A stretch of DNA of 64,000 nucleotides from Pseudomonadota bacterium (GTDB lineage Bacteria; Pseudomonadota; Gammaproteobacteria; Burkholderiales; Burkholderiaceae_C). Shown in pieces: positions 35,879 to 50,583 of this stretch (positions within the stretch are counted from its first letter, which is position 1; each line of letters starts with the position of its first letter). The stretch lies in the NCBI GenBank assembly GCA_020161775.1, contig JAIUOW010000024.1, positions 1 through 64,000 on the forward strand, read 5' to 3'. The notes under the pieces are model-generated. The model did not search any database, was not told where the DNA came from, and saw only the letters and a program-made list of their open reading frames with translations. The translations under genes were made by a program, and so were the position numbers.

Positions 35879-36175
35879 ATGAACAAGTCCACCGCCCTCA
35901 TCGCCATCGCCGCCTTCGCCGCCCTGGCCTCCACCGCTGCCCGTGCCGAAAGCCCGGCTGCTGAATCGCAGTACGCCGTGTCGATCGACGGCAGCCGTAC
36001 CCGCGCTGAAGTCATGGCCGAAGCCTCCACTGTGGCCAAGACCCGCAGCACCGAACCCGCCGGCTCGCGCGTCGCCGCCCCGATCCAGTCCACGCTGGAC
36101 ACCGCCACCGTGCGCGCGCAAGCCGCGCAGGCCGTGCGCCTGGGCCAGATCCCCAGCGGCGAACTGAGCCTGTAA
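35879..36175 (+). CDS. DUF4148-like small periplasmic protein
   Basis: This 98-aa protein has a signal peptide (ALIAIAAFAALASTAARA) and a short Ala-rich mature part containing SRTRAEVMAEA, the motif of DUF4148 proteins common in Burkholderiales. The ATG at 35879 directly precedes the signal peptide, leaving a 5' leader of about 90 nt after the predicted promoter. Its upstream box suggests it is a target of the adjacent two-component system. Function unknown. Confidence 0.75.
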   Translation: MNKSTALIAIAAFAALASTAARAESPAAESQYAVSIDGSRTRAEVMAEASTVAKTRSTEPAGSRVAAPIQSTLDTATVRAQAAQAVRLGQIPSGELSL

Positions 36176-36234
36176 ACCCCGGCGCGGCCCCTGGGCCGCA
36201 CGCGGACACGCGATAATCCGGTCTTGAAAGCCGA

Positions 36235-36268
36235 CGAAGCGCCCCTAATTCAGGGGCGTTTCGCTTTT
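36235..36268 (+). terminator. Rho-independent terminator
   Basis: The stem GAAGCGCCCCT / AGGGGCGTTTC (one G-T pair) with an AATTC loop is followed by GCTTTTT. It terminates the DUF4148 transcript before htpG. Confidence 0.85.
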
Positions 36269-36303
36269 TCCGTTATCGCTGACAGACGTCCACACACAAC
36301 ACC

Positions 36304-38208
36304 ATGAGCAAGCAAACCCTGTCCTTCCAGGCCGAAGTGGCCCAGCTGCTTCACCTTGTCACCCATTCGCTGTATTCCAACCCGGAAATCTTCCTGCGTG
36401 AGCTGATTTCCAACGCGTCCGACGCCTGCGACAAGCTGCGCTTCGAGGCGCTGAACAACCCGGCCCTGTACGAAGACGCGCCCAACCTGGAAGTGCGCGT
36501 GAGCTACGACAAGGACGCCAGGACCCTGACCATTGCCGACAACGGCATCGGCCTGAGCCAGCAGGAAGCGATTGACAACCTGGGCACCATCGCCAAGAGC
36601 GGCACGCGCGAATTCATGGGCAGGCTGTCGGGCGACCAGAAAGCGGATGCCCAGCTGATTGGCCAGTTTGGCGTGGGCTTTTATTCGGGCTTCATCGTGG
36701 CCGACAAAATCACCGTCGAATCGCGCCGCGCGGGCGCCGCCGCGGGCGAGGGCGTGCGCTGGACCAGCGGCGGCACCGGCGACTTCGAGGTGGAAACCAT
36801 CGAGCGGGCCCAGCGCGGTACCAGCGTCACGCTGCACCTGCGCGACGATGCCCAGGACTACCTGAATACCTGGAAGCTCAAGGACATCATCGGCAAATAC
36901 TCCGACCACATTGCCCTGCCCATCCTGATGCGCAAGGAAGAATGGAAGGAAGGGGAAGAAGGCAAGGGCGGCGAAATGGTGCTCACCGACGAGTGGGAAA
37001 CCGTCAACCAGGCCAGCGCCCTGTGGACGCGGCCCAAGAAAAACATCACCGACGAACAGTACGCCGAGTTCTACAAGGCCATCAGCCACGACTTTGAAGC
37101 GCCGCTGGCCTGGGCCCACAACCGCGTGGAAGGCAGCTCTGAATACACGCAGCTGCTGTTCATCCCGGGCAAGGCGCCGTTTGACCTGTGGAACCGCGAC
37201 AAGAAGGCCGGCGTCAAGCTCTACGTCAAGCGCGTGTTCATCATGGACGACGCCGAGGCCTTGATGCCCACCTACCTGCGGTTTGTGAAGGGCGTGATCG
37301 ACTCCGCCGACCTGCCGCTGAACGTGAGCCGCGAGCTGCTGCAGGAAAGCCGCGACGTGAAAGCCATCCGCGACGGCAGCACCAAGCGCGTGCTGTCCAT
37401 GCTGGAAGACCTGGCCCGCCAGGAAAAAGAGGGTGAAAGCGATGAGGCCAAGGCCAAGTACGGCAAGTTCTACGCCGAATTCGGCGCTGTGCTGAAAGAA
37501 GGCCTGGGCGAAGACTTTGCCAACCGCGATCGCCTGGCGAAGCTGCTTCGCTTTGCCTCCACCACCAGCGACACCGTGAGCGTGAGCCTGGCCGACTACA
37601 AGGCCCGCATGAAGGAAGGCCAGGACGCGATCTACTACATCACGGCTGACACGCTGGCCGCAGCCAAAAACAGCCCGCAGCTGGAAGTGTTCCGCAAGAA
37701 GGGCATTGAAGTGCTCTTGATGACCGACCGCGTGGACGAATGGGCGCTGAGCCACCTGAGCGAATTTGACGGCACGCCGATGCAAAGCGTGGCCAAGGGC
37801 GCGGTGGACCTGGGCAAGCTGCAGGACGAAGCCGAAAAGAAGGCGGCCGAGGAAGCCGCGGAAGCGTTCAAGCCGGTGCTGGCCAAGCTGAAAGAGGCCC
37901 TGAAAGACAAGGCCGAGGACGTGCGCGTGACCACCCGCCTGGTTGATTCACCCGCCTGCCTGGTGGTGAAGGACCAGGGCATGAGCCTGCAGCTGGCGCG
38001 CATGCTCAAGGCCGCAGGCCAGGCCGCGCCCGAGGTCAAGCCCGTGCTGGAGGTGAACGCCGACCATGCCCTGGTGAAAAAGCTGGACGGCAGCGTGCAC
38101 TTCAACGACCTGGCCCACATCCTGTTTGACCAGGCCCTGCTGGCCGAAGGCGGCCTGCCGGACGACCCGGCGGCGTATGTGCGCCGCGTGAACGCGCTGC
38201 TGGTGTAA
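36304..38208 (+). CDS. htpG: Molecular chaperone HtpG (Hsp90)
   Basis: This 634-aa protein has full family length and the GHKL ATP-binding motifs [26 protein letters not shown] and [14 protein letters not shown], followed by the middle domain ([28 protein letters not shown]) and a C-terminal dimerisation domain. It lacks the eukaryotic MEEVD tail, as expected. It is a cytosolic ATP-dependent chaperone for late folding steps and stress. Monocistronic in appearance. Confidence 0.95.
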
Positions 38209-38261
38209 AGATGGGGCGCGCGGATACACCCGCGCGCTTTGCCCGCTCCTAGAATGACCGG

Positions 38262-38669
38262 ATGACGCATACCCCACGCTTGTTGATGGCGCCCTGGGCG
38301 CTGGCGCTGCTGGCCCTGGCGGGCTGCGGCACGGCCGGCGTGGGCGTGGGCATCAACATCCCGGTGGGCCCGGTGTCTGTCGGGGTTGGCGTGGGCTCTG
38401 GCGGCGCTACCGTAGGCGTGGGCACGGGCGTGGGCCCGGTCGGCGTAGGGGTGGGCGTCAACCAGCGTGGCGTGGTCTCGGGCGGCGTGGGCGTGGGTGC
38501 GAGCACCCCCATCGGCAACAGCGGCGCCCGCGCGGGCCTGGGGGTTGGCACCGGCACGGTGCTGTACGACCCGCAGAACCGGAACACCACGGCGCCGGCC
38601 GCGACGATCCGCGGCACGCCTGGTGCACGGCAAACCGCACCGGCGGCGGGTGACCTGGTTGCGCCGTAG
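38262..38669 (+). CDS. Gly/Val-repeat lipoprotein
   Basis: This 135-aa protein has a signal peptide and lipobox LAGC. The mature region, residues about 23-95, is a low-complexity run of alternating Gly and Val (GVGVG, PVGVGVGV), then a tail rich in Thr, Ala and Pro. Such sequences form glycine-rich outer-membrane lipoproteins of unknown role. It lies just left of the CRISPR leader or trailer region. Confidence 0.72.
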   Translation: MTHTPRLLMAPWALALLALAGCGTAGVGVGINIPVGPVSVGVGVGSGGATVGVGTGVGPVGVGVGVNQRGVVSGGVGVGASTPIGNSGARAGLGVGTGTVLYDPQNRNTTAPAATIRGTPGARQTAPAAGDLVAP

Positions 38670-38904
38670 CGGCGCGGACGTGCCGTCGACAAACACCAAC
38701 GTAATCGGTGAAAATCAAAATCGATCACGGCACGCTTTGGGCGTTTGGCGGCCGGTGCAAGCAGGTTGCTCCCGTGATCACCTTTCTAGCGAGTTTGGCT
38801 GACTTTCGAAAGACTTCAGCACATCTCCAAAACTGTGTTGGCTCAGATTCTTGAACAACGCGCGAAGCGCTGACTTCACAAGGCAGGTCCTCCTGCGTTG
38901 TGAA
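38670..38904. other. Non-coding region at left end of CRISPR array
   Basis: This 235-bp region without a credible gene holds an inverted repeat GATCACGG (38723-38730) / CCGTGATC (38772-38779), and its right edge is a strong hairpin that runs into the first repeat. It is either the leader or the trailer flank of the array. No clear promoter could be fixed. Confidence 0.5.
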
Positions 38905-38908
38905 GTCA
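38871..38908. repeat. Hairpin abutting and entering the first CRISPR repeat
   Basis: The outer stem TGACTTCACAA (38871-38881) / TTGTGAAGTCA (38898-38908) is perfect. An inner stem GCAGG / CCTGC closes a TCCT loop, with one G-G mismatch between. The right arm supplies the altered first bases of the degenerate terminal repeat (from 38905). Confidence 0.8.
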
Positions 38909-41900
38909 CAGCTCCCTCTCTCACCCCGGATAGCTACACTCGCGCCAACGCCAACGTGCCCCGGCAGCGCCGTTGTAGCTCCCTCTCTCACCCCGGATAG
39001 CTACACTCCAGGAGAAATCGTCCATAGTCGCCGCACCTGTTGTAGCTCCCTCTCTCACCCCGGATAGCTACACTCCCTGACTGGTCTGACACGCAGATTC
39101 TGGCGGTTGTAGCTCCCTCTCTCACCCCGGATAGCTACACTCTTTGAGCGCGGCGACGATCTTCCCCTGATTGTTGTAGCTCCCTCTCTCACCCCGGATA
39201 GCTACACTCGCCGGGGTTGTAGTCATTGGTGACCGTGGCGTTGTAGCTCCCTCTCTCACCCCGGATAGCTACACTCCATCGTCAAGGCCTTTGCTGAGGG
39301 CGAAGCGTTGTAGCTCCCTCTCTCACCCCGGATAGCTACACTCAAAAGCGAATACCAGAAACTCAATGAAGAGGTTGTAGCTCCCTCTCTCACCCCGGAT
39401 AGCTACACTCGCCAACCAGTGGGAGGGCGCTGTCGTGTACGTTGTAGCTCCCTCTCTCACCCCGGATAGCTACACTCGCTGGCTACATCTTGGCCATCGG
39501 ACCCATCGTTGTAGCTCCCTCTCTCACCCCGGATAGCTACACTCCGACTGTATCGATTCAGGCCCTCCGGCATGGTTGTAGCTCCCTCTCTCACCCCGGA
39601 TAGCTACACTCTAGTTCGGGTGTGACAGAGTGCAGGTTGCGGTTGTAGCTCCCTCTCTCACCCCGGATAGCTACACTCGAACGGTCAGCCGGGGATGCCG
39701 TCACTGTGGTTGTAGCTCCCTCTCTCACCCCGGATAGCTACACTCACGGGCGCAACGTACTCAACGGGCATCACCGTTGTAGCTCCCTCTCTCACCCCGG
39801 ATAGCTACACTCAGCGAAGCCATCACATCGTCCGGGCTGGTTGTTGTAGCTCCCTCTCTCACCCCGGATAGCTACACTCGATACCCGTGGCCTAACCCGT
39901 GGGCCAACTGTTGTAGCTCCCTCTCTCACCCCGGATAGCTACACTCGCAGTCACCAGCATGATGTACGGGCCGTGCGTTGTAGCTCCCTCTCTCACCCCG
40001 GATAGCTACACTCCCGGCAACAACTCTTTCCCGAATAATGGAGGTTGTAGCTCCCTCTCTCACCCCGGATAGCTACACTCAGCCCACTGTTGACATGCAG
40101 CCGACGGAGTGTTGTAGCTCCCTCTCTCACCCCGGATAGCTACACTCTTGAGACCGACATTCCCCGCGTCATCTATAGTTGTAGCTCCCTCTCTCACCCC
40201 GGATAGCTACACTCCCCGGCAAACAGGGTGAGGTGATCTGGCAAGTTGTAGCTCCCTCTCTCACCCCGGATAGCTACACTCCCTTGGGTTGATGAATCGT
40301 CAGGGTTTGACGTTGTAGCTCCCTCTCTCACCCCGGATAGCTACACTCCCCGCTGGCGGGGGCCTGTTGATAAGTCGGGTTGTAGCTCCCTCTCTCACCC
40401 CGGATAGCTACACTCGCGGAGACGGGCCATCATCGCGGCCAGATCGTTGTAGCTCCCTCTCTCACCCCGGATAGCTACACTCGCTGATGTGCGCCATCAC
40501 GTGGTTGGTGCGGTTGTAGCTCCCTCTCTCACCCCGGATAGCTACACTCGCGCCGCGCATCTTGCACAGCGACGGCGCTGTTGTAGCTCCCTCTCTCACC
40601 CCGGATAGCTACACTCGTTGTATGCCAGCACAGGCGCACCGACCAGGTTGTAGCTCCCTCTCTCACCCCGGATAGCTACACTCCATATTTCGTGCGGCAT
40701 AACCTGAAAGGAAGTTGTAGCTCCCTCTCTCACCCCGGATAGCTACACTCTGATTCTCCCGATACGTGAGGGTTAGGAGCGTTGTAGCTCCCTCTCTCAC
40801 CCCGGATAGCTACACTCAAAGGGCAGGCAATCAGGTGCATCAAGGCAGTTGTAGCTCCCTCTCTCACCCCGGATAGCTACACTCGCTGAGGCCGGAATAC
40901 TGGGCGACCATACGGTTGTAGCTCCCTCTCTCACCCCGGATAGCTACACTCTGTCCGAATCATCTATGAGCTCGTGATCGAGTTGTAGCTCCCTCTCTCA
41001 CCCCGGATAGCTACACTCCCGACGCCTGCCGCAGCATCGCCACTCAACGTTGTAGCTCCCTCTCTCACCCCGGATAGCTACACTCCGGCGCGGGAGAATA
41101 CCAATCCCCCAAACGGTTGTAGCTCCCTCTCTCACCCCGGATAGCTACACTCCCCATCGGCGTGATGGTGGAGGCTGAGCGCGTTGTAGCTCCCTCTCTC
41201 ACCCCGGATAGCTACACTCTGAGATCGAGGAAACCTGAACATGACACCCGTTGTAGCTCCCTCTCTCACCCCGGATAGCTACACTCTGTCCGAATCATCT
41301 ATAAGCTCATGATCGAGTTGTAGCTCCCTCTCTCACCCCGGATAGCTACACTCTTGCCACACACCGACTACCTAAACACGCCAGTTGTAGCTCCCTCTCT
41401 CACCCCGGATAGCTACACTCGCCGGCGCCCTGGGCGCCAGCGCCACGCTGGTTGTAGCTCCCTCTCTCACCCCGGATAGCTACACTCACGCGGCCAGTGG
41501 CGCCGCCCGTGCCCATTGTTGTAGCTCCCTCTCTCACCCCGGATAGCTACACTCCCACCGTTGACGCTGGCATTCGTCAGCACGGTTGTAGCTCCCTCTC
41601 TCACCCCGGATAGCTACACTCGCGCCGCGTTCCCGATGCGCTTGGTCAGCAGTTGTAGCTCCCTCTCTCACCCCGGATAGCTACACTCGCCAGCGCCAGC
41701 CCGATGTAGGGCACAGCGGTTGTAGCTCCCTCTCTCACCCCGGATAGCTACACTCTGAAAGACCCCGACACCAAACGCCTCGGCGGTTGTAGCTCCCTCT
41801 CTCACCCCGGATAGCTACACTCCTCGAAATACTTGAAGGTATTTTCGCTTATGTTGTAGCTCCCTCTCTCACCCCGGATAGCTACACTCAGATCAGGGAC

Positions 41901-42291
41901 AGCAACTATGCCTTGTGTTGTTGTAGCTCCCTCTCTCACCCCGGATAGCTACACTCGACATAAACACGTTCGCAGGACACTGCCCGGTTGTAGCTCCCTC
42001 TCTCACCCCGGATAGCTACACTCAGTTTTTTTGGCCTTGCCCTCTTTCACATTGTTGTAGCTCCCTCTCTCACCCCGGATAGCTACACTCATCGTTAAAG
42101 CCTTTAAACAGGGCGAAGCCGTTGTAGCTCCCTCTCTCACCCCGGATAGCTACACTCTCTAGCTCAGCCTGTGAAGGCTCAGGATAGGTTGTAGCTCCCT
42201 CTCTCACCCCGGATAGCTACACTCAATGGCGCTGCTTCTGCTACCAGGCGGCTGGTTGTAGCTCCCTCTCTCACCCCGGATAGCTACACTC
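38905..42291 (+). CRISPR. Type II-C CRISPR array, 51 repeats and 50 spacers
   Basis: The 37-bp repeat starts GTTGTAGCTCCCTC and ends GGATAGCTACACTC. Repeat starts follow an exact 67-bp period from 38905 to 42255, so every spacer is 30 bp. All repeats that I read are identical except the first, whose positions 3-5 differ (GTCACA instead of GTTGTA). The 5' part pairs with the anti-repeat of the tracrRNA at 46999-47032, which sets the crRNA strand as +. The repeat resembles that of Neisseria (GTTGTAGCTCCC start). In Neisseria each repeat carries a crRNA promoter ending TACAAT; here the corresponding box is TACACT. Two pairs of related spacers are present: 39277 with 42091, and 40952 with 41287. 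Confidence 0.99.
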
Positions 42292-42305
42292 TGACCCGCT
42301 CGAAA

Positions 42306-42340
42306 CCCGCTCCAAGCCTGGCTTGGAGCGGGCTTTCGTT
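42306..42340 (+). terminator. Terminator at right end of CRISPR array
   Basis: The perfect 12-bp stem CCCGCTCCAAGC / GCTTGGAGCGGG with a CTG loop is followed by CTTTCGTT. It lies 14 bp after the last repeat and 14-49 bp from the cas2 stop, so it can stop array transcription on the + strand and, less strongly, the convergent cas operon. Confidence 0.85.
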
Positions 42341-42354
42341 ATGAAAAACCCTGG

Positions 42355-42687
42355 TCAGAACAGCACAATTTGGGCTGCGTTCACCTTTTTTTCCTGAAAA
42401 AGGGGCAGACCAACCAACAGTTTCATCCCCGCGTACTGCTTTTCTGTCACTGTGAGTACCCGAATAGAGCCTTCCGATGGCAGGTTGGCCAAGAGGCGTT
42501 TCATGTGCTTCTCGCCGGCATCCGCCCCGTTCAGGATGCGGCCATACACAGAAAACTGGATCATGTCGTAGCCGTCATTGAGCAGGAATCGGCGGAACTG
42601 TGTGTAAGCGCGACGTTCGGCCTTGGTCACCACGGGCAAATCGAAGAAGACCATCATTCGCATGAATCGCCTCGTGTCCTGGCTCAT
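42355..42687 (-). CDS. cas2: CRISPR-associated endoribonuclease/adaptation protein Cas2
   Basis: This 110-aa protein has the ferredoxin-like Cas2 fold start [42 protein letters not shown]; the Asp in FFDLP is the conserved family residue. It forms the integration complex with Cas1. It begins 11 nt after the cas1 stop and is the last gene of the cas9-cas1-cas2 operon. The absence of csn2 and cas4 makes the locus type II-C. Confidence 0.97.
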
Positions 42688-42698
42688 AGGCTTGCGCG

Positions 42699-43607
42699 CT
42701 ACATTTCGTGCCGATGCTGATTCAGCCCAATCAGTTTTGGCAATTCCAGTACTTGTTCGCTGCCTCCGTCATACATGCGCGCCATTGACTCGGCCGCTTG
42801 TTCTACCGAAGACAGTACGCTCATCACGCCGCGTGGCATGGCGACGTCGACGTTGAGCAGTCCAACCAAAGCGATCTTGTCTACGGGGCTCAACTCGACG
42901 GAATCATCTGTCTTTCGATTGGTCGCTACAAAAAGATCAACTATCGGTCGATAGGGCTCAATCAAGTCGTCCGCCAGATTGAACGCATTTAGTTCGCTCG
43001 CATGAAAGATACCGATGGTGGGCAGCAGTCCGTGAGCGACCAAGGCACGCGCGCAGGCACCACGCATTACTGCATAGCCGTAGTCCAGGGCCGCGTTGGC
43101 CCAAGTCTCCTGCGCCCGCGTGAAACTGCGGCCCATGATCTGCGGGAAGTAGTACGCGCTGGCCTGCGCTTCCATGTTGCCCGTATCGCCTGAGCGAACG
43201 CGGCGCGCATACGACTCCAGTCTCTCGTGGTCGCCAGAGTTCAGCATCTTCATGCAGAACACCTGATTGTTGATCTTTGCTTGCACTACAGTAGCCCAAG
43301 CCCGCTTGCCAGTTGGCTTGTCCAAGTCAAGCTGCAGTCGCAGCATGCGTGTAGCTCGACTGTGGCTTTGGAATGGCAAAAATACGCCGCTGGGTTGATG
43401 GTTGTCACCGGTGGCATAGAGGCCGATGCCGTATTCGGCGCAAGCAGACAAGACCGGGTGAGTGAGGGTGATCTCACGGTTGTTAAGAACGATCACCGCA
43501 ATGTCTTCGAACGGAACGCGAGCTGATTTTTCTTGTTCGATGACCAGCGCAAAGTGATCGCGCTTGAGCTTGGCTGGATTGCTGACAACAACGCTACGCC
43601 AGACCAC
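42699..43607 (-). CDS. cas1: CRISPR-associated integrase Cas1
   Basis: This 302-aa protein has the type II Cas1 pattern with the metal-binding residues Glu146 (GNMEAQAS), His212 ([17 protein letters not shown]) and Glu227 ([10 protein letters not shown]). It joins prespacers to the array end with Cas2. The start overlaps the cas9 stop by 14 nt (43594-43607), indicating translational coupling. Confidence 0.97.
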
Positions 43608-46600
43608 TTCGCTTCTCCGCAGGTGCCGGGTAGGCCCGTCCCAATGTGTCGACGTGAAGCTTTTCGAGTGAGATGCAAGTTTTCACGCCGATACCTCGTA
43701 CGAGGCCATCCTTTCCGACCGCCTGATTTCGGTCATGGACCCATAGGCTGATTGCTCCAGTGGATCGATCACATCCTGCGTAATATCCAAGAACTGAATC
43801 TTTCTTCAATGTGACTCTTAAAAGATCGTTTGGATATGCGGAGAAGAGGAAATCGCTTTCCTGCACTTCAGTCCACTCGCTTTCGTCCTTGTAGGCCACG
43901 ATAGCTCTGTTTGGAAGTCCTGCTACTTTGTGATGGACATACACAGGAACTACGTGAAACTTCCTCGAGCTCAGAAAAAAATCCACTCTTAGCATCGAAT
44001 CATTCTTGGCAATTCCCCCGCGGATTGCTAAGCCGCTCAGCTTGTCAATTACTAATGTCACAGTGCGCACAACTGGCCCCGTAGAATTCCCCTGCTTGTC
44101 CGGCTTGCGCAGCGGATTGTCAGCAGGAAATGCCTTGTCAGCCTTTCCTGCATGCGCTTCAAGCCGGGTGCGGATGGCGCTGTACAACTTCTCGTTGCGA
44201 TGCGGGTCGGCAAGGTTGTTTAAGTCCTTGAGAGTGAGGCTGGAAAGTGCGACTTTCTGAGTCACGCCGCCTTGCTTCAAGAGCCGCTGCGGTTGCGCAT
44301 AAATTGTTTCCTTGTGCGCCGCACCTCCGTTGCGTCGTTGCGGCGCGCGCGAAACAAACAGAGGGCGGATGCACTCAAGGGCTTGAGGCGAATAACTTCC
44401 CAGACGGCCTGCTTCTTCGCGCAGCGCTGCAACATCGTCGGTCTTGAGTCGCAGCGTCAGTTCATGCCTGAAGTGGGACCAAGGGTCGGGAAAATGTTCT
44501 GTCAGCCGCTGATGCGCTGACGGACTGTTGATCTCGCCAGTCTCCGGGTCGGGAAATCCCTCGCGCAGGTTCTCCAGCTCCTTCTTTCTGGCGTAATCCG
44601 CCAGGCGTTTGACCATGGCGTGACTGCATGCAGCGACCACGGTGGCGTCAAGCGCGTGATGGCGGTCGCTCTCGTCACGAGTCTTGATCAATCCCCAGCG
44701 GGCGCGCAGAAAGCTGGTGAGTTGACCGTTCAGCACGACGCACCGCTTGTTGTCGCTGCCGTCGGCCAACTGCAGGTATTGCTCCACGTAGTTCTTGAAG
44801 AACTTGCAGATATACCGCGTGTCATTGAGGTTTCGATCCTTGAAGGAACTGGCCTCCTCTGCACCGTAGTTCTTGCGCAGCAGGCGACTGCGCTTTGCCT
44901 GACGATAGGATTTGTTTCCTTCGACCCAGGAAACGAAATTACGCCAACGCTCGGATTCGCTCGCGCCGTCCAGAAATTCATACGGCGTTCGGTTCCCCTT
45001 GTCCTGATTGACTTTGGTCAGTGCGAGAACCTTGTTGTTCTTGCTGTCGTCATAGCTGCGGGAGTAGGGCAGCGCATGGTCCACTTGAACATAACTTGGA
45101 TCATCAATGACACGATGCAGGTCAAGGGGCTCCAGGGAATAGCCGCATTTACCGTGTTGCTCCCGGTACAGAAGCCATTTCTCGAATTCAACCCCTGAGG
45201 GGCGGCGATTGAAATCAGCTGTGAACTGCTCCCGAGCTTTCTCGTTTTTTTCTCTGTATTCCTTCTGTAGCTTCTCGATATCGCGTCGTTCGTCCATCGG
45301 ACGCGAAAGGTCCCGCGCCATCTCAATATGTACAGACCAGGGCGCTCCGTACTCCTTGATCAGCGCATTCACCACCTTGCGAGCCTGATTGAGTGCGCGC
45401 AGAACAACCGGATTGCGCGGAATATCGATGTCATCCCGAAATTTCATGCGGCCGTCTTTGTCGCGGCCGTCGTAGAACGGGGGCAAGAATCTTAGGCTTC
45501 CTGCGCCTGCAACAAAGCGTTGGCTGTGATGGCCGTAGTCGGGAATCTTCGCGACAGCCTCGTCATAGCGATGGCCTTGCTCCATCAGCGGAACGATCTG
45601 CCGCAAGGCTTTGAGGGACAGGGCGTGGAACTTGTCAAACCGAATTCCCAGCAATGTCTCAATAACCCTTGAGTCTCCTGGCAGGCCAAGCTTCTCCAGC
45701 TCCGCCTCGACCTCCTTGTCGTCCTTGTAGACGCTCAGAACCCACGCAATGCCGTCCAGTTGCTCTGGACGGCCTTCAATGGCGGCAGTGGAGATCTGAT
45801 CCCACTCGGATTTCAAACCACTCTTGTTAAAAGCGAGGCGAAGCTCGTGCCACGCTGGCAACTTGACCAGCGGCTGGTCTTCCGGGTCTTTTGCTTTCTC
45901 TTCTTCCTTTTGTTTTCCGCTTGGATACGCCAGACCGCCAAAGCGAAAAGACTCGCCAAGCTTTCCGGCTTGGACAAGTGCCTTGCGCAAGGTTTTGTAC
46001 GTGAACTTCTCGCCTGACTGATAGGGCAACGGCAGTGAGAACCGGCGCTCGTCGTCGTTGAGTCCGCGCGAAACGCCATCCACGATAACCCTCAGGTTGT
46101 TCAGCCGCGTCAGCCAGACGTGGCGCTCCGCCGTAAAGCTGGCTTTGGGCGCGCGGTATTCACCCTTTTCAAAGGTGCAATGACCCAGCATTTTGAGAAG
46201 GTCTTTGCCTGCGAGCGCGGGTTTCTGCGACCAAAGGAGGCCGCTGCGCGAGCCGTTGCGGCCGCGCAATGCTTCCTCCAGCGCCGGTGTCGCATAGGGG
46301 TTGCCGTGCTCCCGCTGGGACGCGAAGAGGCTTGCCAACTCGGCGTCGAGCAAAACACGGGATAGCGCCTTGCCATAGTCGCCCCGCTTGTTGCGCTGTG
46401 CATCCGGGAATTCGGCCAAGACCATTTCAGCTGCGGTCCGGTAGCCCTTTTCCGTCATCAGCTTCTTCGTATGAGCCAGCCCCGCCTTGACCCTCCCACT
46501 TTCCCCTTTGGTGTCCTCATCGGCCTTTCGCTCTTCGGCTCTGCTGATCCAGTGAAAGCCGCGGTGCTTGCACAGGTGATAGATCACTCGAGCCCATTCC

Positions 46601-46971
46601 ATGGGCGTCAATTGCCGGTCCAGGCCGGCTACTCGCAGCGCCCAGGTGGAGTCCGTGAAGTTGGGTTGGGTCTTCAACGCATCTACAGAGTTCAGGACGC
46701 CATGTCGCTTGAGCAAACGTCCCAGCTTTGTCAGTCGCCACGCCCGCCGCCAAAGGCGTCGGCGCAGCAAGCGCGCTTTCCGTCGTTGCAGATTCAGCGA
46801 CTCGCCTTTGTCGGCGGTTTCTGCTTTGTCGAAGGCGCGCACGCCCAAGTCAATGATCCGCCTCTCGGAAATGACCGACCAGCCGACAGACGCAATGCCA
46901 ATGTCGAGCCCGAAGGTGAATGGACCTTCATTGGAAACCGGGCTTTTCCCCGTTTGCTGGTTGTCACCCAT
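43594..46971 (-). CDS. cas9: Type II-C CRISPR endonuclease Cas9
   Basis: This 1125-aa protein is within the compact II-C size class (Neisseria Cas9 is about 1080). RuvC-I FGLDIGIASVGWSV carries Asp23. The arginine-rich bridge helix spans residues 62-90 (QRRKARLLRRRLWRRAWRL). RuvC-II HIEMARD carries Glu550. The HNH motif has Asp631, His632 and Asn655 (QVDHALPYSRSYDDSKNNKV). RuvC-III HHALDA carries His772 and Asp775. All catalytic residues are present, so the nuclease should be active. The start ATG 46971 has GAGGACGAGGAC upstream; the tracrRNA promoter on the other strand overlaps it. The PAM cannot be read from sequence. Confidence 0.98.
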   Translation of the reverse strand: MGDNQQTGKSPVSNEGPFTFGLDIGIASVGWSVISERRIIDLGVRAFDKAETADKGESLNLQRRKARLLRRRLWRRAWRLTKLGRLLKRHGVLNSVDALKTQPNFTDSTWALRVAGLDRQLTPMEWARVIYHLCKHRGFHWISRAEERKADEDTKGESGRVKAGLAHTKKLMTEKGYRTAAEMVLAEFPDAQRNKRGDYGKALSRVLLDAELASLFASQREHGNPYATPALEEALRGRNGSRSGLLWSQKPALAGKDLLKMLGHCTFEKGEYRAPKASFTAERHVWLTRLNNLRVIVDGVSRGLNDDERRFSLPLPYQSGEKFTYKTLRKALVQAGKLGESFRFGGLAYPSGKQKEEEKAKDPEDQPLVKLPAWHELRLAFNKSGLKSEWDQISTAAIEGRPEQLDGIAWVLSVYKDDKEVEAELEKLGLPGDSRVIETLLGIRFDKFHALSLKALRQIVPLMEQGHRYDEAVAKIPDYGHHSQRFVAGAGSLRFLPPFYDGRDKDGRMKFRDDIDIPRNPVVLRALNQARKVVNALIKEYGAPWSVHIEMARDLSRPMDERRDIEKLQKEYREKNEKAREQFTADFNRRPSGVEFEKWLLYREQHGKCGYSLEPLDLHRVIDDPSYVQVDHALPYSRSYDDSKNNKVLALTKVNQDKGNRTPYEFLDGASESERWRNFVSWVEGNKSYRQAKRSRLLRKNYGAEEASSFKDRNLNDTRYICKFFKNYVEQYLQLADGSDNKRCVVLNGQLTSFLRARWGLIKTRDESDRHHALDATVVAACSHAMVKRLADYARKKELENLREGFPDPETGEINSPSAHQRLTEHFPDPWSHFRHELTLRLKTDDVAALREEAGRLGSYSPQALECIRPLFVSRAPQRRNGGAAHKETIYAQPQRLLKQGGVTQKVALSSLTLKDLNNLADPHRNEKLYSAIRTRLEAHAGKADKAFPADNPLRKPDKQGNSTGPVVRTVTLVIDKLSGLAIRGGIAKNDSMLRVDFFLSSRKFHVVPVYVHHKVAGLPNRAIVAYKDESEWTEVQESDFLFSAYPNDLLRVTLKKDSVLGYYAGCDRSTGAISLWVHDRNQAVGKDGLVRGIGVKTCISLEKLHVDTLGRAYPAPAEKRSGLA

Positions 46972-46989
46972 GTCCTCGTCCTCTAGAAT
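46961..46989 (+). promoter_or_regulatory. Predicted tracrRNA promoter
   Basis: TTGTCA (46961-46966) and TAGAAT (46984-46989) are separated by 17 bp, which predicts a start near 46996. The -35 box lies inside the first codons of cas9 on the opposite strand. Confidence 0.7.
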
Positions 46990-46995
46990 TCACCC

Positions 46996-47094
46996 TGTTG
47001 TAGTTATCCGGGGTGAGAGCCGTTGCTGCAATAAGAATCTCGCAAGAGATTCGTATCCAGAAGCCCGCCGGGGAAACCCGGCGGGTTTTCTCTT
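46996..47094 (+). ncRNA. tracrRNA
   Basis: The anti-repeat TGTAGTTATCCGGGGTGAGAG (46999-47019) is complementary to the 3' two thirds of the repeat with one G-T pair. After a bulge, GTTGCTGCAAT (47022-47032) pairs with the GTTGTAGC start of the repeat. The order GGTGAGAGCCGTTGCTGCAATAAG closely parallels the Neisseria tracrRNA. It is followed by a nexus hairpin AATCTC-GCAA-GAGATT (47036-47051) and a terminator hairpin CCCGCCGGG-GAAA-CCCGGCGGG (47064-47085) with TTTTCTCTT. At about 99 nt it is compact for II-C. It guides RNase III maturation and loads crRNA into Cas9. Confidence 0.92.
46997..47031 (-). promoter_or_regulatory. Candidate cas9 promoter inside the anti-repeat
   Basis: On the - strand, TTGCAG (47031-47026) and GATAAC (47008-47003) are 17 bp apart, with TACAAC (47002-46997) as an alternative -10. 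Both lie in sequence shared with the CRISPR repeat (CCCCGGATAACTACAAC versus CCCCGGATAGCTACACTC). Confidence 0.4.
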
Positions 47095-47125
47095 ATCAGC
47101 CTTCTAAAGGTGAGTCGTCCTCATG

Positions 47126-47374
47126 TCAATCCTCCAACTTGGGGAGAAGACGCGGCTCGTTGGCCTGCGCGAAGGACGTAACTTCGCGTTCGAGCTCCCC
47201 AGCATCAAGCCGCGTCACCGGGATGCGAAGTGATCCCAGCAGATCAATGAACGCCGACAGACTCATACCCGCCAATCTCGCGGCATGACTCAAACTGATT
47301 TGGCCTTCGTCGAAGAGTCGCGCGGCTGAGCGTACGGGCTCATCAAGTGGGGATGATGTTTGGTCGGTTGTCAT
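47126..47374 (-). CDS. UPF0175 family (antitoxin-like) protein
   Basis: This 82-aa protein (84 aa if the GTG at 47380 is used) has the UPF0175 core AARLFDEGQISLSHAARLAGMSLSAFIDLLGSLRIPV, a small helix-turn-helix-like domain. UPF0175 proteins usually pair with a DUF3368 PIN toxin, but none is adjacent here, so it is an orphan. It begins 2 nt after the srkA stop (or overlaps it if GTG is used) and points at the tracrRNA terminator. Confidence 0.75.
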   Translation of the reverse strand: MTTDQTSSPLDEPVRSAARLFDEGQISLSHAARLAGMSLSAFIDLLGSLRIPVTRLDAGELEREVTSFAQANEPRLLPKLED

Positions 47375-47376
47375 CT

Positions 47377-48384
47377 TCACACCACCAGCGCCGGCTCCTC
47401 CATCGCCTCCAGCTGTTCCTGCAGCATCTGCACCTGCCCCTGCCAGTAGTCGCTGGTGCCAAACCAGGGGAAGGCGGCGGGGAAGGCCGGGTCGTCCCAG
47501 CGGCGAGCCAGCCAGGCGCTGTAGTGGATCAGGCGCAGCGTGCGCAGCGGCTCGATCAGCGCCAGCTCGGCGCGGTCAAATTCACGGAACTGTTCATAGC
47601 CATCCACCAGCGCGCCCAGCTGCTGCGTGCGTTGCGCACGGTCACCGTCCAGCAGCATCCACAGATCCTGCACCGCGGGGCCCATGCGGGTGTCGTCCAG
47701 GTCCACAAAGTGCGGGCCGCCGCCGGGCTGGTCTTCGGGTGTCCACAGGATGTTGCCGGGGTGGCAGTCGCCATGCAGGCGGATGGTGGCGGTGCGGGTG
47801 TGCTCAAAGTGCCGTGCAATGGCGTCGATCGCCTTGTTGCACTCGGCCTGCCACGCGCCCTGCACGTCCAGCGGGATCATGTGGTGCGCCAGCAGCCAGT
47901 CGCGCGGCTCGGTGCCAAAGGTGCGTAGGTCTAGCGTGCCGCGCTGCGCAAACGGCCGCGCCGCGCCCACGGTGTGGATGCGCGCCAGGAAGCGGCCAAG
48001 CCATTCCAGCACATTGGCGTCGTCCAGCTCGGGCCGGCGCCCGCCGCGGCGCGGGCTCACGCTGAATGAAAAGCCCGCGTGCGGGTGCAGCGTGCGCCCC
48101 TGCAGCACCAGCGGGCCAATGGCGGGCACCTCGGCCGCCATCAGCTCGGCGGCAAACGCGTGTTCTTCCAGGATCTGCGCCTCGCTCCAGCGTCCGGGCC
48201 GGTAGAACTTGGCCACCACCGCGCTGTGTCCCGCGTGCGGCTCTTCCAGGTGGATGAGATACACACGGTTTTCATACGAGCTCAGGGCCGTCAGGCGGCC
48301 ATCGCCATACAGGCCGACTGACGCCAGGGCGTCCATCACCACGTCGGGCGTCAGGGTTTCATACGGGTGCGGGGCTTCGGTCAT
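47377..48384 (-). CDS. srkA: Stress response kinase A (YihE/SrkA-like)
   Basis: This 335-aa protein has the aminoglycoside phosphotransferase/choline kinase fold of SrkA: VAKFYRPGRWSEAQILEEHAFAAEL (substrate region), the catalytic LHGDCHPGNILW (HGDxHxxN) and the metal-binding FVDLDDTRMGP. SrkA-type kinases act in stress survival. It overlaps the end of the kinase-USP gene by 26 nt. Confidence 0.87.
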   Translation of the reverse strand: MTEAPHPYETLTPDVVMDALASVGLYGDGRLTALSSYENRVYLIHLEEPHAGHSAVVAKFYRPGRWSEAQILEEHAFAAELMAAEVPAIGPLVLQGRTLHPHAGFSFSVSPRRGGRRPELDDANVLEWLGRFLARIHTVGAARPFAQRGTLDLRTFGTEPRDWLLAHHMIPLDVQGAWQAECNKAIDAIARHFEHTRTATIRLHGDCHPGNILWTPEDQPGGGPHFVDLDDTRMGPAVQDLWMLLDGDRAQRTQQLGALVDGYEQFREFDRAELALIEPLRTLRLIHYSAWLARRWDDPAFPAAFPWFGTSDYWQGQVQMLQEQLEAMEEPALVV

Positions 48385-49834
48385 GTGCCGATTGTGGGCC
48401 CCGCGTGTCCGGTGGTGCGTCCAGCAGGGCGAACGGTGTTGCCTGGCGCACCAGCAGCACGCTGCAGGGGGCGTCCATCACCACGCGCATGGGCACGGTG
48501 GCCACCAGCCGCTGCATCTGCAGGCCGTGGGTGGCCGCGCCCAGCACCATCAGGTCCACATGGTTGCCACGGGCATAGGTGCACAGCGCGCGTGCCACGT
48601 CGCCCGACTCAATGACGTGGAACGACGCCTGGTGGCCTTCCAGGTGGATGCCCTGGGCCCACTGGCGCAGCCGTTCCAGGTGCAGGCGATGGGCGTCGAT
48701 CTCGTCCTGGCCGCTGTCCACCGGCGCAATCACGCTCACGCAGGCCAGCCGGGCGCCGGGGCGTATGCCCAGCGACCGGCTCACCGCCTGGCGCAGCGAA
48801 TACAGCGTGGCGTCGCTGGCGTCCAGGTGCGGCACGGCCACCATCACGATGGGCACTTCGCGGATCGCCTGTGACGGCAGCGGGCTGGGTTCGTATTGCA
48901 GGCCCGCGGCCCTGAACCAGCGCCGCAGGTGGGTGCGCAGCGGCGTGCCGCGGGTGCGCCCGCCGCGCTCACCCACCACCACCTGGTCCGGGTGGCCCAG
49001 GTCGAACGCCAGGTGCGCGGCCGACGGATAGCGGCGCGCGGCTTCGGGTTCCAGGCAGCGCAGGATGACTTCCTGCAGCCAGCCCGGCACGCCTGCATTC
49101 AGCGCGCGCGGCGGGGGTGGGGCCATCCACAGCCGCTGGCGCAGCCCGCCCGTGGTGGCTGGCTCGCCAAACGGCAGCTCGCCCGTGGCCAGCTCGTACA
49201 GCATGACGCCGATGGCAAAGATATCGCTGCGCGGGTCGCCGCGCACGCCCACCACCTGCTCGGGCGCCATCCAGGCGGGCGAGCCCACGGCGCGGCGCAG
49301 TTCCTCGGCCAGCAGGTCGGGGTAGTGCGCATGCCAGCTCAGGCCAAAGTCCAGCAGCACGGCGCGCCCGTCGTGGCGGATCAGCACGTTGGCGGGCTTC
49401 AGGTCCAGGTGCACCGCGTTTTGCTGGTGCAGGCTGTGCGCCGCCACGGCCATGGCCTGGCCCAGCCGGGCGATCTCCTGCGCATCCGGGCGCTGGCGCA
49501 GCGTGCGGGCTTCGTCCAGCCAGTGCTGCAGCACGCGGCCGGGCACGTATTCCATGACCAGGTAGGGCAGGCGTGCCAGGTCGCCCGCGGCCACGAAGCG
49601 CGGCACGTGGTCACCGCCCAGGGTCTGGAAGATCTGGTGCTCGACCTCGAAGCCCAGCAGGTTCTCCGCGCCGTCGTCGCCGGCCATGCGCGGCACCTTC
49701 ATGGCCATGGCAAAGCCGGGGTCGGGCCGGCCGTCGGCGTAGTGCACGCGGTAGATGTGGGCCATGCCACCCGAATGGATCACTTCGCCCACGGCAAACC
49801 CGTCGAGCACGGTGCCCGGTGCCAGCAGTTTCAT
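48359..49834 (-). CDS. Ser/Thr protein kinase fused to universal stress protein domain
   Basis: This 491-aa two-domain protein has a kinase at residues about 1-275: Gly loop IHSGGMAHIYRVHY, Lys in MAMKVPRM, catalytic HLDLKPANVL, DFG in LLDFGLSW, and MAPEQV. The C-terminal UspA domain ends in the nucleotide-binding pattern GAATHGLQMQRLVATVPMRVV. The ATG at 49834 overlaps the stop of the metallophosphoesterase gene and has a good GGAGG site; an upstream start is less likely. It probably couples stress or nucleotide sensing to protein phosphorylation. Confidence 0.85.
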   Translation of the reverse strand: MKLLAPGTVLDGFAVGEVIHSGGMAHIYRVHYADGRPDPGFAMAMKVPRMAGDDGAENLLGFEVEHQIFQTLGGDHVPRFVAAGDLARLPYLVMEYVPGRVLQHWLDEARTLRQRPDAQEIARLGQAMAVAAHSLHQQNAVHLDLKPANVLIRHDGRAVLLDFGLSWHAHYPDLLAEELRRAVGSPAWMAPEQVVGVRGDPRSDIFAIGVMLYELATGELPFGEPATTGGLRQRLWMAPPPPRALNAGVPGWLQEVILRCLEPEAARRYPSAAHLAFDLGHPDQVVVGERGGRTRGTPLRTHLRRWFRAAGLQYEPSPLPSQAIREVPIVMVAVPHLDASDATLYSLRQAVSRSLGIRPGARLACVSVIAPVDSGQDEIDAHRLHLERLRQWAQGIHLEGHQASFHVIESGDVARALCTYARGNHVDLMVLGAATHGLQMQRLVATVPMRVVMDAPCSVLLVRQATPFALLDAPPDTRGPQSAHDRSPAPV

Positions 49835-50583
49835 CGCCCTTCCTCCAGCCTTTGTGCAAACCATCCGGGCTGGGGCGTGCGCCGCACGGCCGCCGCCGCT
49901 GCCCGGTATTCGTAGGCTACGCGGTGAAAGGTGAGGCGGCCTTGCGTGGCGTCAAACAGCGCGTACATCGCGCGCGGGTCGCCATCGCGCGGCTGCCCCA
50001 CCGAGCCCACGGTGGCCAGCCACTGGCGGTGGGCCGGCACCGGTATGGCCACGCCCGGCGTGGGCATGAATTCCATCAGCGCGCGGGCGGCGCCCTGGTA
50101 GTACAGGCGCTGGTGGTGCACATGCCCGCAAAACACGTGGCTCACGCCCGAGTGCGCGCAGGCCGCCGCCAGGCTGCGCTGGGCGCGGTGGGGGTTGTCC
50201 ACGTAATGCCAGTTGGCGGGCGCATCGGCGCTGGCATGCACCAGCCAGGCGCTGCCCAGCTGCGCGTGCAGCGGCAGCCTCGCCAGGAAGGCGCACTGGG
50301 CTGCGTCCAGCTGACCGTGTGTCCAGGCGGCCGACAGGTCGCCGTGGGTTTGCGGCTGCGCCGGCGGCTGCACGGCCAGCGCGTCATGGTTGCCGCCCAG
50401 CACCACCGCGCCGCGGGCGGCCAGGTGCATCACCGCGTCCACCACCTGCGCGGGCTCGGCGCCGTAGCCCGTCAGGTCGCCCAGCACGGCATGGTGGGTG
50501 GCGCCGGCCTCCTGCGCATGGGCCAGGCAGGCGTGCAGCGCGCGCAGGTTGGCGTGGATGTCCGACAGCAGGGCCAGCTTCAT
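49831..50583 (-). CDS. Metallophosphoesterase (YfcE/MJ0936-like)
   Basis: This 250-aa calcineurin-like phosphoesterase has LLSDIHANL (DxH), AVLGDLTGYG, LGGNHDAL and CGHVHHQRL, so the dinuclear metal site is complete. It overlaps the kinase-USP gene by 4 nt, which suggests a linked kinase and phosphatase-like unit. Whether it acts on proteins, nucleotides or other phosphate esters cannot be told. Confidence 0.85.
   Translation of the reverse strand: MKLALLSDIHANLRALHACLAHAQEAGATHHAVLGDLTGYGAEPAQVVDAVMHLAARGAVVLGGNHDALAVQPPAQPQTHGDLSAAWTHGQLDAAQCAFLARLPLHAQLGSAWLVHASADAPANWHYVDNPHRAQRSLAAACAHSGVSHVFCGHVHHQRLYYQGAARALMEFMPTPGVAIPVPAHRQWLATVGSVGQPRDGDPRAMYALFDATQGRLTFHRVAYEYRAAAAAVRRTPQPGWFAQRLEEGR

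What the first reader, a model, noticed from the sequence alone, without database searches (positions are those of the whole stretch)
40952..41316. Spacer pair 31/36 differs only by two changes that are synonymous in one frame
The spacers at 40952-40981 and 41287-41316 match at 28 of 30 positions. On the reverse strand, in one frame, both encode DHELIDDSD and both differences are third-codon-position changes (CAC/CAT, CTC/CTT). In the other frames the changes alter residues or hit stops. This pattern is what selection on a coding protospacer would leave, so these two spacers were probably captured separately from two related invaders at the same site, rather than by array mutation.
Basis: partly seen in the sequence, partly recalled or inferred. 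Interest (0 to 1): 0.78.

Follow-up and report, generated by a model that had tools for sequence, protein, structure and literature searches.

The report
CRISPR re-sampling of filamentous phage relatives
Two nearly identical memories in a bacterial CRISPR array were probably taken from two related filamentous phages at the same spot of one phage gene, within an array that holds many memories of that phage group.

Summary
In detail: spacers 31 and 36 agree at 28 of 30 bases, and one reverse frame reads DHELIDDSD in both. The silent-change argument was weaker than stated: 27% of double transitions are silent in some open frame. Its prediction nevertheless held. A filamentous-phage contig (L003), found through a different spacer pair (6/48), encodes exactly DHELIDDSD in that frame of its Zot-family assembly gene; its 7-8 differences from the spacers are all silent. 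Shuffled spacers reached 7 residues at most. In all, 12 of 50 spacers match L003 at 22 or more of 30 bases (reversed-spacer maximum 20), including the five next to cas2. The system is type II-C. Array mutation is a poor explanation. Against: no exact protospacer was found, and the same motif occurs in bacterial katG genes, some 25-26/30 to the spacers, though the host's own katG is only 18-19/30. Invaders, PAM and order of capture remain inferred. A close parallel is published for Legionella. Verdict: reading supported; a new example of a known kind.

The parts
38905..42291 (+). CRISPR array, 51 repeats of 37 nt and 50 spacers of 30 nt; the only place with this repeat in the held genome at up to 3 mismatches
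38905..38941 (+). first repeat, 3 mismatches; probably the old end of the array
40952..40981 (+). spacer 31; probable target in phage zot, CAC/CTC version of DHELIDDSD
   Evidence: 22/30 to L003:4515-4544, all differences silent
41287..41316 (+). spacer 36; same protospacer, CAT/CTT version
   Evidence: 23/30 to L003:4515-4544, all differences silent
39277..39306 (+). spacer 6; target in phage rep (IVKAFAEGE); probably the older member of the second pair
   Evidence: 28/30 to L003:767
42091..42120 (+). spacer 48; same rep site shifted by 1 nt (IVKAFKQGEA); probably the younger member of the second pair
   Evidence: 22/30 to L003:768; 23/29 to spacer 6
39143..39172 (+). spacer 4; target in the phage single-strand DNA binding protein gene
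   Evidence: 29/30 to L003; phrog_2866
40684..40713 (+). spacer 27; target at or just before the start of the coat-like ORF
   Evidence: 28/30 to L003
40751..40780 (+). spacer 28; target in rep (LLTLTYREN)
   Evidence: 22/30 to L003; 24 and 25/30 to L137 and L145
40818..40847 (+). spacer 29; target in L003 where ORFs 1013-1372 and 1257-1619 overlap
   Evidence: 22/30 to L003
41957..42187 (+). spacers 46, 47, 48, 49 with their repeats; match L003 at 29, 26, 22, 28 of 30
42225..42254 (+). spacer 50, nearest cas2; target in the ORF just upstream of zot
   Evidence: 27/30 to L003, differences silent
42355..42687 (-). cas2
   Evidence: PF09827 1.1e-15; TIGR01573 4.5e-23
42699..43607 (-). cas1, type II (NMENI)
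   Evidence: TIGR03639 6e-82
43594..46971 (-). cas9, 1125 aa
   Evidence: TIGR01865 3e-220; solved Cas9 6kc8 8.3e-227
46999..47090 (+). probable tracrRNA: anti-repeat 46999-47031, then an inverted repeat and T run
   Evidence: anti-repeat score 21 against 11 for the next separate site in 36001-49100 outside the array; end read by eye

Best explanation
A type II-C CRISPR-Cas9 system sampled the same protospacer twice, in the Zot-family (pI-like assembly ATPase, function recalled) gene of two related filamentous phages. SHOWN: the pair; the coding frame in a phage that other spacers of the array also match; a second same-site pair in rep; 12 of 50 spacers against one phage contig at 22/30 or better. 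INFERRED: 31 was captured first and 36 later, at the cas2 end, from a relative whose target differed from crRNA 31 at 14 and 8 bases from the PAM side. The protein motif is kept, so the phage varied there by silent changes, and the host took a fresh copy of the same site.
For: Pair confirmed. L003 was found through the 6/48 pattern, then seen to encode DHELIDDSD in Zot, PF05707 3.7e-13; L005 too. An exact 9-residue run in L003 is unusual: 2000 shuffled spacers gave 7 at most, and the 37 spacers not assigned to L003 gave 5 at most. Spacers 31 and 36 differ from L003 by 8 and 7 bases, all silent. Over the 12 spacers 39 silent and 14 changing differences, expected silent share 0.226. Histidine codon CAT 10 and CAC 11 among 26 distinct Zot alignments. 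Second pair 6/48, shifted by one base. 12 of 50 spacers at 22/30 or more on L003; maximum 20 in 750 reversed-spacer comparisons. Spacers 46-50 all match L003 (random placement 0.0004, chosen after seeing it). 50 unchanged repeats, where an array-mutation model would expect about 43 changes in 35. Anti-repeat fixes the crRNA strand. 3' flank motif NNNNNNRA at 7 of 11 sites, as strong in 2 of 150 random placements; nothing on the 5' side. Reports that II-C arrays grow at the 3' end (PMC12638026, PMC8092290, passages).
Against: No exact protospacer in the collections tried. 31 and 36 are only 22-23/30 to L003, while katG genes picked by the peptide pattern reach 25-26/30. The exact nine residues occur in only 2 of 26 Zot alignments, and the leucine codons of the spacers are rare there: CTC 1, CTT 0. 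The L003 flank of the zot site reads AG, not RA, at positions 7-8. Age order rests on one degenerate repeat and the literature, and PMC12638026 says II-C may hold groups with different acquisition ends. Spacer 48 (young) fits L003 less well than 6 (old). Outside L003 other spacers reach 22-23/30 without a known reason: 17, 39, 1, 9, 37, 38. By protein alone spacers 27, 28, 29, 6, 49 and 48 (scores 39-45) lie inside the null range, top values 47 and 46 of 150.
Confidence: 0.84

Rival explanations
1. Spacer 36 is a copy of spacer 31 made inside the array (repeat-mediated duplication), and two mutations followed.
For: Identical boundaries, and both differences are G against A.
Against: Neighbouring spacers are not duplicated. 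50 repeats are unchanged where about 43 changes would be expected in 35 of them, though repeats may be under selection or homogenised. The 6/48 pair is shifted by one base, which this cannot give. CAT and CAC both occur in Zot relatives.
Confidence: 0.05
2. The two spacers come from katG (catalase-peroxidase) genes or a mobile element carrying one, not from phage zot; the frame would still be coding and the changes still silent.
For: The peptide DHELIDDxD lies in a KatG-like context in 97 of 101 pattern-selected genome loci; two were confirmed as peroxidase, PF00141. Best matches 26/30 (spacer 36, L055) and 25/30 (spacer 31, four loci).
Against: These loci were selected by the peptide pattern from 257 billion bases, so high identity is built in. 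Only 10 of 101 have serine at residue 8, at 18-24/30. The host's own katG reads DHALVEAQD there, 18-19/30. L003 was found independently and other spacers match it.
Confidence: 0.05
3. Both spacers come from one phage or one infection that carried two zot variants (mixed population or tandem prophage).
For: L003-type phages are clearly variable; the spacers lie only five positions apart.
Against: Spacers 32-35, which lie between them, do not reach 20/30 on L003, which suggests separate events; relatives of L003 could still be their source.
Confidence: 0.06
4. Add-on to the best explanation, not exclusive of it: re-capture at the same site was promoted by partial matching of the older crRNA (primed adaptation after escape) and was not chance.
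For: Two coincident pairs among 12 recognised spacers; with 1 in 10 positions usable in a 7-kb genome, two or more coincident pairs have P about 0.0008. L003-matching spacers cluster (6 adjacent pairs, P 0.014). Priming is reported for type II-A (PMC8265633, passages) and proposed for Legionella pairs (PMC5071653, passages).
Against: If 30 spacers came from such phages the same P is 0.05, and 0.28 at 1 usable position in 32. Conserved sites are also easier to recognise. In PMC8265633 priming shows as spacers from the same region, within kilobases; use of the identical protospacer is not what those passages describe.
Confidence: 0.3

Closest known systems
Legionella pneumophila Toronto-2005 type I-C spacer pairs against LME-1 (PMC5071653; passages)
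   Same: Two pairs of spacers of different age hit overlapping regions of one recurrent element; its authors offer escape followed by primed acquisition as one reading.
   Different: Type I-C there, with the element in hand and the newer spacer of each pair a perfect match; here type II-C, a filamentous phage, only relatives in hand and no better fit of the newer spacer.
Neisseria meningitidis: type II-C arrays (PMC9238386, passages) and an unusually high share of inovirus spacers (PMC6813254, passages)
   Same: A type II-C system with many inovirus-derived spacers.
   Different: Different host; the passages seen do not describe same-site pairs with silent differences.
Flavobacterium columnare arms race, type II-C and VI-B loci (PMC5524643, passages)
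   Same: II-C array gaining phage spacers over time; 6 of 18 phage-targeting II-C spacers had altered protospacers in later phages.
   Different: The four most specific changes there were non-synonymous and lay in protospacers of the VI-B locus.

Membership tests
Type II-C CRISPR-Cas | cas9, cas1, cas2 present | tested here: met
Type II-C CRISPR-Cas | no csn2 or cas4 beside the operon | tested here: met
   63 bp separate array and cas2; of the ORFs tested upstream of cas9 two are kinase or phosphotransferase-like and the rest unmatched; not every neighbour was tested
Type II-C CRISPR-Cas | tracrRNA with anti-repeat | tested here: met
   46999-47031 +; expression not testable
Type II-C CRISPR-Cas | PAM on the 3' side of the protospacer | tested here: inconclusive
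   NNNNNNRA at 7 of 11 sites of a relative; single-position test not significant (P 0.089) and the zot site does not fit in L003
Inovirus (filamentous phage) target | Zot/pI-type ATPase gene | tested here: met
   PF05707 3.7e-13; phrog_197 5.4e-33; gene cut by the contig end
Inovirus (filamentous phage) target | rolling-circle Rep, ssDNA-binding protein and coat genes in one small genome | tested here: met
   PF23343 7.6e-12, phrog_3419, phrog_2866, phrog_7106, phrog_1242; 2 of 7 proteins unmatched; contig 4,715 bp, incomplete
Same-protospacer re-sampling from related invaders | each spacer matches its own invader exactly at the same site | tested here: inconclusive
   only relatives found
Primed adaptation | acquisition depends on a pre-existing partly matching spacer | not testable with these tools
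   needs an acquisition assay

The most novel reading that the evidence does not exclude
A type II-C system re-captured the identical protospacer, in a conserved motif of a filamentous-phage assembly gene, because the older crRNA still recognised the silently changed target well enough to promote acquisition: same-site updating of memory driven by escape.
Probability: 0.22. Interest if true: 0.65.

Novelty: new member of a known kind. Interest (0 to 1): 0.4.

Why it matters
The array looks like an ordered record of repeated encounters with one filamentous-phage group. It gives two natural pairs for testing whether type II-C immunity is renewed at the same site when a phage escapes by silent change. 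It also shows that a pair of near-identical spacers can point to the reading frame of an unknown target, and that a short shared motif (Zot and KatG here) can mislead if only one database hit is used.

Tried and rejected
The whole array against phages gave 35 records with 25-base matches at E about 4, to spacers 4 and 41. Against plasmids it gave 10 records: an Acidovorax plasmid, looked at, two Pasteurella plasmids, not looked at, and short matches. The first degenerate pattern missed L003 because it allowed only TCN serine codons; the widened one found L003 and L005.

The one genome-contig scan returned 101 stretches. A filter for the motif after a P-loop kept 0 of 118 loci, of which 101 were from that scan. 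On re-checking, 97 of the 101 lie in a KatG-like context by a motif test. I had first passed these over as chance; they are now a rival, and confidence in the best explanation was lowered from 0.88 to 0.84 for it. Rep gave 0 of 1 genus genomes (only the window's own) at 1e-10 and 1 of 399 order genomes at 1e-30.

Spacer 18 is a possible further L003 spacer (protein score 44, exceeded by 2 of 150 null values; DNA 20/30) and was not counted; it would add 3 silent and 7 changing differences. For spacer 29 the count used ORF 1013-1372; the overlapping ORF would give 0 silent and 6 changing. Spacers 31 and 36 were both counted, the serine codon switch counts three silent bases in each, and spacer 27 may lie outside the coding region, so the P is too small. 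The PAM doublet was found by scanning afterwards. The null maximum was 20 on L003 and 21 on the larger family stretches of 7.6-16 kb. L005 and L006 are the same contig, so the 15 loci are 14 contigs.

Full report
What is there. The window holds a complete-looking type II-C locus: cas9 (1125 aa), cas1 and cas2 on the minus strand, a probable tracrRNA just upstream of cas9 on the plus strand, and an array of 51 repeats and 50 spacers of exactly 30 nt next to cas2. It is the only place with this repeat in the held 4.36-Mb genome (32 contigs) at up to 3 mismatches. The anti-repeat shows that crRNAs read along the plus strand, so the PAM should follow the spacer's 3' end. The first repeat carries 3 changes and the other 50 none.

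The pair. Spacers 31 and 36 match at 28/30, far above shuffled spacers. Only one of six frames is open and identical, reading DHELIDDSD. Taken alone this is weak: 27% of double transitions would be silent in at least one open frame, and 13% with that frame fixed.

The target. L003, an incomplete IMG/VR contig of 4,715 bp, was found with a pattern for the other pair, 6/48. It carries Rep, ssDNA-binding, coat-like, minor-coat-like and Zot-family genes; 2 of 7 proteins tested had no PHROG match. Its Zot gene holds the peptide in the predicted frame, with 8 (spacer 31) and 7 (spacer 36) differences, all silent. An exact nine-residue run is far beyond chance: 2000 shuffled spacers reached 7 at most (one case), and the 37 spacers not assigned to L003 reached 5. 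A widened pattern over IMG/VR found only L003 and L005, both Zot genes.

Variation in relatives. A Zot relative at 1e-12 was found in 14 of 399 genomes of the bacterial family, the window's own included and negative. Of 29 loci, 27 aligned and 2 were dropped for low score, giving 26 distinct rows. Some alignments are poor (L007, L009, L012-L014) and stayed in the count. Histidine is CAT in 10 and CAC in 11, both spacer states. Leucine is the residue in 20, but CTC occurs once and CTT never, and the exact nine residues only in L003 and L005. So one of the two silent positions is seen varying in the same way in relatives, the other is not.

A rival found on re-checking. The same peptide is frequent in KatG: 97 of the 101 loci of the genome contigs pattern scan have a KatG-like context, two of two tested are peroxidases, and the best are 26/30 to spacer 36 and 25/30 to spacer 31. 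These loci were chosen by the peptide, so high identity is built in; only 10 of 101 have serine at residue 8. The host's own katG is 18-19/30 and reads DHALVEAQD. Since L003 was found independently and carries other spacer matches, I favour zot, but katG is not excluded.

More of the same. The pair 6/48 matches at 23/29 with a one-base shift and reads IVKAFAEGE and IVKAFKQGEA in Rep. In all, 12 of 50 spacers (4, 6, 27, 28, 29, 31, 36, 46-50) match L003 at 22-29 of 30; the maximum was 20 in 750 reversed-spacer comparisons. Four of them (28, 29, 31, 48) sit at 22. On other loci some spacers reach 22-23 unexplained (17, 39, 1, 9, 37, 38), so the threshold is not perfect. The 12 show 39 silent and 14 changing differences against an expected silent share of 0.226 (not fully independent). 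They cluster: 6 adjacent pairs (P 0.014), and the last five all match (P 0.0004, post hoc). In the own genome no Rep relative was found at E up to 10, and the Zot query found only the two spacers.

Mechanism. The simplest account is ordinary adaptive immunity against a recurring, variable filamentous-phage group. Studies report that II-C arrays favour growth at the downstream end (PMC12638026, PMC8092290; passages), here the cas2 side, though the first paper warns that II-C may contain groups with different ends. Spacer 36 would then be younger than 31, and 48 younger than 6. The 31/36 differences fall 14 and 8 bases from the PAM side; the latter is in the expected seed (recalled, not tested). 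Escape of crRNA 31 followed by new capture at the same site is plausible but not shown. Two coincident pairs are unlikely for 12 spacers under loose PAM use but not if many more spacers derive from such phages or usable sites are sparse.

Array mutation. A duplicated spacer with two later changes would imply about 43 changes in 35 repeats of the same age, and none are seen; selection or homogenisation of repeats could lower that figure. The shifted 6/48 pair cannot arise in this way.

PAM. On L003 the 3' flanks favour R then A at positions 7-8 (7 of 11 sites, reached in 2 of 150 random placements; 5' side 29%). The zot site in L003 reads AG there, so the motif is provisional.

Known or new. 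Legionella type I-C pairs against LME-1 are a close published parallel (PMC5071653), and N. meningitidis is noted for inovirus spacers (PMC6813254). I file this as a new member of a known kind. All papers were seen as search listings and passages only.

Noticed in passing
39277-39306 and 42091-42120: Second pair of spacers (6/48) from the same Rep site, shifted by one base; includes two amino-acid changes (AE to KQ).
   Followed up: yes
41957-42254: The five spacers next to cas2 (46-50) all match one inovirus contig, suggesting a burst of captures.
   Followed up: partly
L049:3545-3571 and 96 other genome-contig loci: KatG genes share the motif DHELIDDxD with the phage Zot gene, an apparent coincidence of two unrelated proteins at the spacer site.
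   Followed up: yes
L004:5013-5049 (plasmid pEP1, Acidovorax temperans): In the stretch read the plasmid keeps one altered repeat beside cas2, with a hairpin-like stretch between them and a cas1 annotated at only 390 bp: it looks like a decayed relative of this locus.
   Followed up: partly
40014-40043: Spacer 17 matches at 23/30 a resolvase-like ORF of the inovirus-like contig L005.
   Followed up: no
41622-41651: Spacer 41 has a 25-base match (96%) in Xanthomonas citri phage CP2 and a 26-base one (96.2%) in a Burkholderia plasmid gene named Gp37/Gp68 family, E about 3-4, possibly chance.
   Followed up: no
41354-41383: Spacer 37 matches at 22/30 prophage stretch L137 about 160 bases from the place of spacer 28; it may be another rep-derived spacer or chance.
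   Followed up: no
47377-49864: Upstream of cas9 and the tracrRNA lie a phosphotransferase-family gene and a protein kinase gene with a universal-stress domain.
   Followed up: partly
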